Assembly (NCBI GenBank): GCA_010671905.1
Contig: JAAHII010000001.1
Location: 2,418,001-2,482,000, forward strand
Source: Leptolyngbya sp. SIOISBB
GTDB taxonomy: Bacteria; Cyanobacteriota; Cyanobacteriia; Phormidesmidales; Phormidesmidaceae
DNA: 64,000 nt
Reading direction: 5' to 3'
The translations under genes and the position numbers were made by a program. The notes under the pieces were generated by a model. That model saw only the letters and a program-made list of their open reading frames with translations. It was not told the DNA's origin and did no database searches. Of this stretch, positions 53,894-56,201 are shown piece by piece (the stretch's first letter is position 1; every line of letters begins with the position of its first letter).

Positions 53894-54379
53894 TCAAAGG
53901 CTTTTGAAATATCGAGCGACTGGCCACAACTCAAAGCCGACCTTCTCATAGGTTTGACGGGCTGGCGCATGACCAGGGTCGCCACCAGTTTCCACCATCG
54001 CGATCTCCATCCCGGCATCTTTCATCCAATCAAGCGCAAAATCAAGCAGAGCGGTACCAATGCCGCGGCCTTGAAAGGCTGGATCAACCGCAACCATATA
54101 GATTTCGCCCATGCAATCTTCTGGGTGAAGTTTCACGGCGACAAAACCGACTGTCGTATCTTCTTCGATCGCGAGCCATACTGGGGTGTCTTCAGCGGCA
54201 CACACAGTCTCAACCGCCGCCTGTTGGCTAATACGCCAATGCTCAGGATAGAACGCCTGATAAACATCCACGTTCATCGTGCGCTGCATCGAATCAAAAA
54301 CCGGGGTCCAGGCCTGTAGCGACAACCGTACTACAGCCTCAAGGTAACAAGGGGCGTATGACTCAATTCGGATTCCCAT
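53894..54379 (-). CDS. GNAT family N-acetyltransferase
   Basis: This 161-residue protein has the GNAT fold: IRIESYAPCYLEAVVRLS at the start, GEIYMVAVDPAFQGRGIGTALL carrying the acetyl-CoA loop Q-G-R-G-I-G, and a C-terminal KVGFELWPVARYFK. It would acetylate a small molecule or protein amine; the substrate is unknown. Single gene, minus strand. Confidence 0.88.
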   Translation of the reverse strand: MGIRIESYAPCYLEAVVRLSLQAWTPVFDSMQRTMNVDVYQAFYPEHWRISQQAAVETVCAAEDTPVWLAIEEDTTVGFVAVKLHPEDCMGEIYMVAVDPAFQGRGIGTALLDFALDWMKDAGMEIAMVETGGDPGHAPARQTYEKVGFELWPVARYFKSL

Positions 54380-54542
54380 ACAGATAAGCTTCAGAGAACT
54401 TTGTCAGCATCGACAATAATATTACATATACTACAAAAATCAATGTCTACATGATGGTGGACAGCGCAGCGCTCATGCCACCTTTGTTGAATGCAGCATG
54501 GGCTGAGCCGCAGCTGTGCGATCGCGCTTGTTATCGACCGAT

Positions 54543-54576
54543 AAAAAATCCCCGCTAGAGCAAACCAGCGAGGATT
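54543..54576 (-). terminator. Terminator for the repeat-protein gene
   Basis: On the minus strand AATCCTCGCT, a 10-nt loop and AGCGGGGATT form a 10-bp stem with one G-T pair, followed by TTTTTATCG. It lies about 75 bp after the stop at 54651. Confidence 0.75.
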
Positions 54577-54650
54577 CGTATTACAGGAGAGGAGTGAACA
54601 CACACAAACGAACAGAAAGAACACACACAAACAGAAATGAGTAAATCACC

Positions 54651-55331
54651 CTAATCTTTATCGAGATTCTCACGACGAATGTCATCAGCATTGATGGCAT
54701 CTTTATCGAGATTTTCTTGACGCAGTGCGTCAAACTTTGCGCCTTTTTCTAAGTTCTCTTGGCGCAATTCATCCAGCACAGATGCGTCCTTATCCAGGTT
54801 TTCTTGACGCAATTCGTCAAAATCAGTTCCCCCAATCTGGATTTCGGTGACTGCGTCTTTTTCCAAGTTCTCTTGGCGCAGCTCATCAAAGTCAGCTGCA
54901 TCTTTGTCTAAATTTTCGCGACGTAGTTCGTCAAACTTATTCCCTTTTTCTAAGTTTTCTTGGCGCAACTCATCCAGAATTGAGGCATCTTTATCCAGAT
55001 TTTCCTGACGCAACTCATCAAAATCAACGCCTTTTATATACACCTCAGTGATGGCGTCTTTGTCGAGATTTTCCTGGCGCAGTTCATCAAAATTGACGGC
55101 ATCCTTATCCAAATTCTCGCGACGCAATTCATCGAGGCTGATGGATTTGACTGTGATTTCTTGGATAGCATCTTTGTCGAGATTTTCCTGGCGCAGCTCA
55201 TCGAAGTTGACGGCATCTTTATCGAGGTTCTCTTGGCGCAGCTCATCAAAATCAGGAGCGGCATAGGCGGCAGGTGCGACAGCAATCGTGGCCACGGTCA
55301 AAACAGTTAGAGCAATGGCAAAACGTTTCAT
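54651..55331 (-). CDS. Exported protein of 12 repeats of DELRQENLDKD
   Basis: This 226-residue protein has a Sec signal peptide (MKRFAIALTVLTVATIAVAP, cut near AYA-AP). The mature part is almost entirely 12 copies of a 13-residue unit, consensus FDELRQENLDKDA. Units follow each other with 1-3-residue links, or with 10-residue inserts such as IQEITVKSIS, ITEVYIKGVD and VTEIQIGGTD after repeats 2, 4 and 8. It has no Cys, is strongly acidic and very regular. Each unit is amphipathic and may form a helical or solenoid layer. I know no function. A perfect AAGGAG at 55340-55345 sets the start. It sits alone before a good terminator. Confidence 0.9.
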   Translation of the reverse strand: MKRFAIALTVLTVATIAVAPAAYAAPDFDELRQENLDKDAVNFDELRQENLDKDAIQEITVKSISLDELRRENLDKDAVNFDELRQENLDKDAITEVYIKGVDFDELRQENLDKDASILDELRQENLEKGNKFDELRRENLDKDAADFDELRQENLEKDAVTEIQIGGTDFDELRQENLDKDASVLDELRQENLEKGAKFDALRQENLDKDAINADDIRRENLDKD

Positions 55332-55697
55332 GGTTTGAACTCCTTAGCGGTGTTAAGTGAATCAATCATCTTGAGTTCTATAGTGCGGCTCAGTCCTGAA
55401 GACTCTCTGACTGGCAAATAAGTGCGGCTTAACAGCTCCCTGAGAATTCTGAGAACATTCCTCGGTTGACCTGAGAAGCGGTGACCAACATCACTGATGA
55501 TCGTGAAAACCCTTGAAGTTAGGTGTCATTAGGAGTTTGGCTGAGTAGTATTAAGCCATCAGAGATGATCTGAATAGCTGTCGATGGGCTTGGTCATTGT
55601 GAATCGACTACAGGCAGGTTCAGGTCCCTGATGCTGTAGCCGCAGAGAGCGAAGCAATTTTAGGCATGTCAAGCGTAGTGGGATGTAGGCGATCGCG
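55332..55697. other. Divergent intergenic region of the repeat protein and the XRE gene
   Basis: Contains AGTGCGGCT twice (near 55382 and 55421). Promoters of both divergent genes are expected here; none could be fixed with confidence. Confidence 0.5.
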
Positions 55698-56201
55698 ATG
55701 AAACCCGGCAGCAAATACTATCCTCTATACCAACGCTTTTCCCAGATTGGGGCGGAGACTTTTACCCTCACGATTGATGAAATCCAAGCTCACGTCGAGA
55801 GCCAGCTACCCACCACTGCTCGGACCAAAACTTCATGGTGGGCCAACCGTCGCAAAGGTGGATACCAGTCTCAAGCGTGGATCAAAGCTGGCTACCGGGT
55901 AGCCCAGGTGGAGCTGGCACAACAACGAGTCACCTTCAAAAAGTTTCAGGCTGAGTACAAAATTCAGCGAGAAGCCGGAGCCATCAAGTGGGACCAAGCA
56001 GCAATTCGAGCATTGCGCTTGCATATGAATTTGACGCAATCTCAATTTGCGGAAGCGATCGGCGTGCGGCGTCAAACTATTAGTGAGTGGGAAAATGGCG
56101 TTTACGCGCCTGATCGCTCCACCATGAAACATCTAGGCCTAGTTGCTGAAAAAGAAGCCTTTGCCCCTGCTAACTACTACATCCCACCAGCAGCAGAATG
56201 A
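55698..56201 (+). CDS. Transcription regulator: DUF7662-like domain plus XRE helix-turn-helix
   Basis: A 167-residue protein. The N-terminal half (YYPLYQRFSQIGAETFTLTI, then WWANRRKGGYQSQAWIKAGY) resembles the small DUF7662 domain found in bacterial and phage-associated proteins. Residues about 103-150 are an XRE helix-turn-helix (LRLHMNLTQSQFAEAIGVRR). It probably binds DNA; target unknown. Not in an operon. A MITE-like copy follows. Confidence 0.75.
   Translation: MKPGSKYYPLYQRFSQIGAETFTLTIDEIQAHVESQLPTTARTKTSWWANRRKGGYQSQAWIKAGYRVAQVELAQQRVTFKKFQAEYKIQREAGAIKWDQAAIRALRLHMNLTQSQFAEAIGVRRQTISEWENGVYAPDRSTMKHLGLVAEKEAFAPANYYIPPAAE

What the first reader, a model, noticed from the sequence alone, without database searches (positions are those of the whole stretch)
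54651..55331. Exported protein of 12 near-perfect DELRQENLDKD repeats
The whole mature protein is one 13-residue unit repeated with 10-residue inserts at regular places. I cannot match it to a known family. Its regularity, acidity and signal peptide suggest a structural or ion-binding periplasmic or matrix protein.
Basis: seen in the sequence. Interest (0 to 1): 0.62.

Follow-up and report, generated by a model that had tools for sequence, protein, structure and literature searches.

The report
Exported repeat echo of secreted peptide
A cyanobacterial exported protein built of twelve near-identical units is a many-copy echo of a small peptide for which the same genome has a separate export pump, and the two match each other in several lineages, including two whose unit sequence is unrelated to this one.

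Summary
The repeat gene is real: window 54651-55331 (-), 226 aa, Sec-type signal peptide, 12 units of FDELRQENLDKD on a 15-residue period. It is one of nine dispersed Sec-type genes of this kind in its genome. The same two-unit module is the core of a small double-glycine (GG) precursor encoded beside a C39-peptidase/NHLM peptide exporter in that genome. I compared 26 genomes that hold a GG peptide and a Sec-exported tandem array of its core. Units differ by lineage (RRENLDKD, RLEHLDNQTK, RFxxxRxxxLNK, GRSAQEFTDGLGNK). A 27th genome, with an unrelated proline-rich core, was found by a prediction test; a second such test (G304) failed. Synonymous sites between partners are near saturation, so the match looks kept by selection, not by recent copying. 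An 11-bp-phased promoter array, of the sort OmpR/PhoB-type regulators use, precedes 54 of 80 Sec genes and 0 of 37 GG genes examined. Function is unproven. Best guess: like-with-like assembly of an inducible extracytoplasmic polymer, with the GG peptide as seed or cap. Rivals: decoy immunity, two-route signal, common descent only. My searches of an open-access library showed no description of such pairs.

The parts
54651..55331 (-). Coding sequence of the Sec-exported tandem-repeat protein, 226 aa, stop included
   Evidence: ORF listing and translation; checked again
55260..55331 (-). Signal-peptide-like start MKRFAIALTVLTVATIAVAPAAYA (24 residues; cleavage site judged by eye)
   Evidence: Sequence; similar starts in paralogues and relatives. 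No signal-peptide predictor was available
54654..55250 (-). Array of 12 units (FDELRQENLDKD and variants)
55137..55169 (-). Long linker AIQEITVKSIS after unit 2
55023..55055 (-). Long linker AITEVYIKGVD after unit 4
54822..54854 (-). Long linker AVTEIQIGGTD after unit 8
55369..55453 (-). Conserved 85-bp promoter element with CTCAG-like sites on an 11-bp comb, ending in TATAGA..CTCAAG
   Evidence: Ungapped in 33 of 45 Sec-type upstream regions; matrix scan; comb test; coordinates
55377..55382 (-). Putative -10 element TATAGA inside that element
   Evidence: Conserved in the alignment; the sigma-70 consensus scan listed no promoter here
55340..55345 (-). Ribosome-binding-site-like AAGGAG
   Evidence: Conserved upstream of the Sec genes

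Best explanation
Shown by sequence: the gene encodes a tandem-repeat form, with a Sec-type signal peptide, of a module whose one- to four-unit form is the core of a GG-leader precursor, most often encoded beside genes of a C39-peptidase ABC exporter of the NHLM type. Where I compared them, partners in one genome or lineage match in protein sequence although their synonymous sites have diverged almost fully. Inferred, not shown: both products leave the cytoplasm, meet, and bind like with like. The Sec proteins (nine genes in this genome, of different lengths) would be multivalent backbone subunits of an extracytoplasmic polymer or sheath, induced together, where they carry the 11-bp array, by an OmpR/PhoB-type response regulator. 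The GG peptide, sent out by its own pump and not under that promoter, would be the short seed, cap or cross-bridge. Like-with-like binding would explain why partners must match whatever the sequence is.
For: Same module behind a GG leader in the same genome (L044), divergent to cyc_nuc_ocin (216.3 bits, cut-off 161.05), an NHLM HlyD-like gene (69.9 bits, below its cut-off of 156.2) and NHLM_micro_ABC1 (1093 bits, cut-off 853.3). At least one such gene lies in the fetched flank of 28 of 36 distinct GG peptides. GG core and Sec array match in 26 genomes: mean local scores within clades 139, 116, 79, 150 against 15-59 between clades; within-clade label permutation gives fractions 0.0013, 0.024 and 0.0007. 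Prediction test passed in G301 with an unrelated core; G038 likewise has an unrelated unit. Synonymous differences GG-Sec 0.59-1.15 per site in 25 genomes, nonsynonymous/synonymous 0.03-0.60. Shared 11-bp comb in Sec genes of four clades, 54 of 80, against 0 of 37 GG genes. Precedent for GG peptides as matrix parts: EbfG1-4 are needed for biofilm, and EbfG1-3 form amyloid (passages of PMC4997328, and PMC9981879).
Against: No localisation, expression or binding data. The proline-rich G301 unit is unlike the helical prediction for L166, so no single fold explains all pairs. The model of the window protein itself is poor (pLDDT 60.4, pTM 0.23). Pairing is not strict: in family f24, 10 of the 28 genomes without a full-length GG hit still have Sec arrays, and G265 (83% complete) has the GG gene without one found. 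G304 failed the prediction test. The own-genome partner ranks first among all genomes in only 8 of 26. 26 of 80 Sec genes lack the comb, and none was seen at the G301 array.
Confidence: 0.4

Rival explanations
1. Decoy immunity. The GG peptide is an interbacterial toxin with an extracytoplasmic target, and the multi-copy array occupies that target or soaks up the peptide, protecting the producer; a change of peptide forces a change of array.
For: NHLM/C39 clusters are usually annotated as bacteriocin systems (TIGR names; PMC3140520). Matching of partners is what a mimic would need.
Against: Sec genes are dispersed and were not seen next to the GG gene in the loci read; no recurrent neighbour joins the dispersed loci. 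Sec genes are multi-copy and carry a promoter element that the GG genes lack. Genomes with a GG gene but no Sec array found exist (G265).
Confidence: 0.2
2. Two-route signal. The array is a polyprotein cut outside the cytoplasm into the same peptide that the C39 pump exports directly; both feed one receptor.
For: The array is a head-to-tail copy of the core; the response-regulator-like promoter would fit feedback. Some GG precursors themselves carry two leader-like GG segments.
Against: No processing protease identified; long linkers differ between paralogues; no receptor gene identified near the GG loci in the ORFs that I read.
Confidence: 0.2
3. History only. Arrays arose from GG cores within each lineage, and the match reflects descent, without present cooperation.
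For: Related genomes share units by descent, and the permutation test ignores phylogeny.
Against: Synonymous sites have diverged almost fully while protein matches. The promoter element is shared by Sec genes of four clades whose units differ, which fits one old Sec family whose unit changed in step with the GG core.
Confidence: 0.15

Closest known systems
Cyanobacterial NHLM/C39 'bacteriocin' gene clusters, group V of Wang et al. 2011 (PMC3140520; Results and Discussion read)
   Same: C39 ABC transporter, HlyD, protein with two CAP_ED (cyclic-nucleotide-binding) domains, GG precursors with diverse cores
   Different: The Results and Discussion do not mention a Sec-exported tandem array of the core; the GG cores here lie near no modification enzyme that I recognised
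EbfG1-4/PteB of Synechococcus elongatus (PMC4997328, PMC9981879; passages read)
   Same: Small GG proteins exported by a C39 transporter, needed for biofilm; EbfG1-3 amyloid-forming, EbfG4 on surface and in matrix
   Different: No Sec-exported array in the passages read; I made no sequence comparison with EbfG
Curli CsgA/CsgB (recalled; named in a passage of PMC9981879)
   Same: Repeat-built fibre subunit plus a homologous minor nucleator
   Different: Both curli proteins use one outer-membrane exporter and are beta-rich; here two inner-membrane routes and at least one helix-predicted lineage
Pediocin-like bacteriocins with Sec or GG leaders (recalled, no call)
   Same: One core type found behind either kind of export signal
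   Different: There the leaders are alternatives for single cores, not a co-resident peptide and tandem array
TIGR02953 pentapeptide MXKDX repeat protein (NCBIfam)
   Same: Signal peptide plus low-complexity K/D-rich repeat; window protein scores above the cut-off
   Different: No Met in the mature protein; below cut-off without the signal peptide

Membership tests
TIGR02953 pentapeptide MXKDX repeat protein | Score above the curated cut-off | tested here: met
   47.2 vs 41 for the whole window protein; but 32.7 for it without signal peptide, and 32.7 and 25.6 for relatives L042 and L063
TIGR02953 pentapeptide MXKDX repeat protein | Repeated M-x-K-D-x pentapeptide | tested here: not met
   No Met among the 201 residues after position 25
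NHLM/C39 GG-peptide system (for the partner L044, not the window gene) | C39-peptidase ABC transporter next to the precursor | tested here: met
   TIGR03796 1093 bits, cut-off 853.3; Peptidase_C39 in the L077 homologue, 117.1 bits
NHLM/C39 GG-peptide system (for the partner L044, not the window gene) | HlyD-type secretion protein at the curated cut-off | tested here: not met
   TIGR03794 69.9 vs 156.2 bits, 192 aa only
NHLM/C39 GG-peptide system (for the window gene) | GG leader | tested here: not met
   Window protein starts with a Sec-type signal, and units follow directly
CTB family bacteriocin NF038167 (for the GG peptides) | Score above the curated cut-off | tested here: not met
   17.6, 24.4 and 21.3 vs 32 for three GG peptides, leader region only
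EF-hand calcium-binding protein | Pfam EF-hand match | tested here: not met
   Not among the window protein's Pfam matches up to E 10; relative L045 15.3 vs 25.4 bits
Curli-like fibre | Extracellular fibre formation | not testable with these tools
   Needs purified protein or microscopy

The most novel reading that the evidence does not exclude
Several cyanobacterial lineages run a general 'echo' arrangement: whatever core peptide the C39/NHLM pump exports, the genome also carries Sec-exported tandem arrays of that same core, often expanded to many loci and placed under a response-regulator promoter. Core and array evolve together as a lineage-specific code for assembly or self-recognition outside the cell.
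Probability: 0.35. Interest if true: 0.85.

Novelty: categorically new. Interest (0 to 1): 0.72.

Why it matters
Many cyanobacterial GG peptides are listed as putative bacteriocins with unknown products (290 precursors in PMC3140520), and EbfG suggests that some are matrix parts. A matching Sec-exported array gives such peptides a candidate partner, a shared promoter to follow and a direct binding test. The export half is a known kind of system; the pairing is what I could not place in any known kind. That statement rests on the searches and 97 of an open-access library, so a description in a subscription paper would have been missed.

Tried and rejected
Known repeat family: best Pfam match DUF5716_C, 17.8 vs 34.7 bits; best solved-structure match E 0.17; no Rfam match in 54300-55800. 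Viral or mobile origin: no relative among viral contigs; two uncultured phage records at 30-32% identity and five Priestia plasmid records at 20-22% were taken as composition matches and not followed. Shared neighbours: among 26 Sec loci compared, the recurring neighbour genes did not join the dispersed paralogues; the window locus and L049 are syntenic. A helical rod for all members: supported by a model for one relative (L166), poor for the window protein, and unlikely for the proline-rich G301 unit. No structure-library search was run, because one model is poor and the other is a plain helix. Two further sites with the promoter pattern in the own genome (L133, L134) are not followed by a repeat gene; the backwards control of that looser pattern also gave 2 sites in the genome against 10.

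Limits of the data sets: the GG and Sec sets come from fetched loci only, with ORFs taken by regular expression. A few Sec ORFs are probably miscalled (e.g. the second frames in L117 and L101). The script lists G028, G032, G265, G280 and G363 as GG-only, but G028 does have a Sec array (L274), and not all matches in the others were fetched. Units were picked by motif, which lowers the nonsynonymous figure, and G038 gave none. The permutation test does not correct for phylogeny. G291, G209 and G252 (partial or other GG matches) and G326 (weak hit) were not resolved.

Full report
Observation. The unit is 12 conserved residues on a 15-residue period, with 8 extra residues after units 2, 4 and 8. 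Between units, synonymous differences reach 0.93 per site and nonsynonymous 0.11 (66 pairs), so the array is not a recent duplication and its protein sequence is constrained.

Own genome and relatives. A protein search gave 15 matches at E<=1. Reading the loci resolved these to nine Sec-type genes (L001-L008 and L045, the window gene included), one gene with another kind of start (L044) and one short fragment at C1:747529. Of 59 genomes (own plus relatives), 20 match at E<=0.001, all in the same family; 0 of the 23 outside it do at that sensitivity.

The partner. L044 encodes MAENTNKETLSDDQLKDVSGG followed by two units, then a second GG and two more units. Compact versions with one two-unit core occur in e.g. 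Nodosilinea nodulosa PCC 7104 (L077)...LSDDQLEEVAGG-VDFDQLRQENLDKDASRLDEIRRENLDKD. L044 is divergent to cyc_nuc_ocin, a short HlyD-like gene and the C39 transporter NHLM_micro_ABC1; the HlyD-like gene is below its curated cut-off. Of 36 distinct GG peptides, 28 have at least one homologue of these genes in the fetched flank and 8 have none; many flanks were only about 1.5 kb. The set resembles group V of Wang et al. 2011, where proteins with two CAP_ED domains are reported (Results and Discussion read).

Pairing across lineages. A profile of eight GG peptides matched 49 of 388 genomes drawn from the class; several of the weak matches cover the leader only. Reading those loci gave GG peptides with other cores. 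(a) Genera g2 and g13: core HQTRLEHLDNQTKSVKDIQQARLEHLDNQTK. Eight genomes were searched with the G019 peptide; seven have GG forms and repeat proteins with that motif, and the eighth, G326, has one hit at E 0.09. (b) Family f24: GG-LTQRFEDARLENLDKG... beside the exporter, and Sec arrays SDRFDEARRENLDKGISAEVSLT in the same genomes. (c) G038, family f4: core SGRSAEEFKDGLGNK, and a Sec protein of ten LTGRSAQEFTDGLGNK-like units. (d) Prediction test, G301: the GG core ARPPSGDSNPSDAKNTTVDDRDII is unlike the others. The search of its genome gave three consecutive matches in one frame (E 0.001-0.002 each), and the ORF starts MKSLLFIALSTLSLSVAFVSQQQA and goes on with three copies of an LPPSGDMNPSDRGNRTVDTSDII-like repeat. 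Local score 81, against a maximum of 53 in 2000 shuffles of the core; homologues of the CAP and HlyD genes lie beside the G301 GG gene. (e) The same test in G304, family f15, found only the GG gene itself, although a CAP homologue lies near GG genes there too. These tests are few and not a random sample.

Strength of the match. In 26 genomes where I had both forms, mean local scores of GG core against Sec array are 139, 116, 79 and 150 within the four clades and 15-59 between them; the highest between-clade value, 59, reflects that the first and third clades share part of the motif. Permuting genome labels within clades reaches the observed sum in fractions 0.0013 (n=11), 0.024 (n=7) and 0.0007 (n=7). 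The own partner ranks first among all 26 for 8 genomes only, so the match is mostly at the level of lineages. Synonymous differences between GG and Sec units are 0.59-1.15 per site in the 25 genomes measured, and nonsynonymous/synonymous ratios are 0.03-0.60; I read this as selection on protein rather than recent gene conversion or duplication. Co-occurrence is not strict: in f24, 8 of 36 genomes have a full-length GG hit, and 7 of these 8 have Sec arrays, as do 10 of the other 28 (one of the 18 genomes, G265, was hit only at its GG gene).

Promoter. In 33 of 45 Sec-type upstream regions an ungapped 85-bp element is found, with CTCAG-like sites every 11 bp followed by TATAGA. A matrix trained on these also scores far above shuffles upstream of Sec genes in the other three clades, with exceptions in each larger clade; no GG gene scored so. 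A matrix-free comb test gave 54 of 80 Sec genes (33/45, 8/12, 12/22, 1/1 by clade), 0 of 37 GG genes and 0 of 2340 shuffles. An exact pattern occurs in 36 of 388 genomes, all in families f1 and f24, with none for the backwards control. Of the 36 distinct sites that I read, 27 precede Sec arrays, 3 precede DUF4278-like genes, 2 precede DEP-domain-like genes and 4 are unresolved (one gene of each of the two kinds checked by Pfam). An 11-bp comb is typical of OmpR/PhoB-family response regulators (recalled); the regulator is unknown. So the Sec genes look like one old family whose unit changed in step with the GG core. The G301 array shows no comb in the locus read.

Structure. AlphaFold2 for the window protein is poor (pLDDT 60.4, pTM 0.23). 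For a relative with 18-residue units (L166) it gives one helix over residues 28-169 (mean pLDDT 86.6, pTM 0.39). Periods of 15 and 18 are both compatible with long helices or coiled coils (recalled), but the G301 repeat is proline-rich, so helix formation is not the general principle.

Mechanism. Shown: one module behind two kinds of export signal, exporter neighbourhood of the GG form, lineage-level matching with diverged synonymous sites, shared promoter on the Sec side. Inferred: export of both, meeting outside the cytoplasm, like-with-like binding, matrix role. I put about 0.4 on inducible homotypic assembly, 0.2 on decoy immunity, 0.2 on a two-route signal, 0.15 on descent only. Dispersed genes, many copies, variable length and separate regulation speak for a bulk product more than for an immunity factor; that is judgement.

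Known or new. The GG/C39 half is known. The window gene exceeds the TIGR02953 cut-off but lacks its defining repeat. Motif strings were found in no paper; term combinations on cyanobacteria, GG peptides, C39/PCAT, repeats and signal peptides gave listings in which I saw no such pairing; apart from the papers named, only listings were seen. I call the pairing categorically new on that footing, and would lower this to a new variant if subscription literature describes it.

Noticed in passing
L267, L270, L279 and L263, L280 (loci with the promoter pattern): The same promoter pattern precedes small DUF4278-like genes (three loci, one checked by Pfam) and DEP-domain-like genes (two loci, one checked): possible other members of the same regulon.
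   Followed up: partly
L014, L015, L020, L065, L066, L070 (upstream of Sec-type genes): These Sec genes (Nodosilinea-type genomes) share a different conserved upstream stretch with GGAACG-like repeats instead of the CTCAG comb.
   Followed up: no
L133 (G000:C2:283364): An orphan copy of the promoter element in the own genome, near umuD/umuC-like and transposase-like ORFs, with no repeat gene after it.
   Followed up: no
L079 2861-3424 and similar ORFs in L026, L073, L074, L078: A chlorite-dismutase-like gene (Pfam, 42.4 bits, L079 only tested) follows the GG gene in these loci.
   Followed up: no
window 54545-54585: By eye, a hairpin followed by T's downstream of the gene on the minus strand, perhaps a terminator; the consensus scan did not list it.
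   Followed up: partly
L288 (G304): Several further GG-leader peptides with yet other cores lie in one locus near a CAP homologue; their genomes were not searched for arrays of those cores.
   Followed up: no
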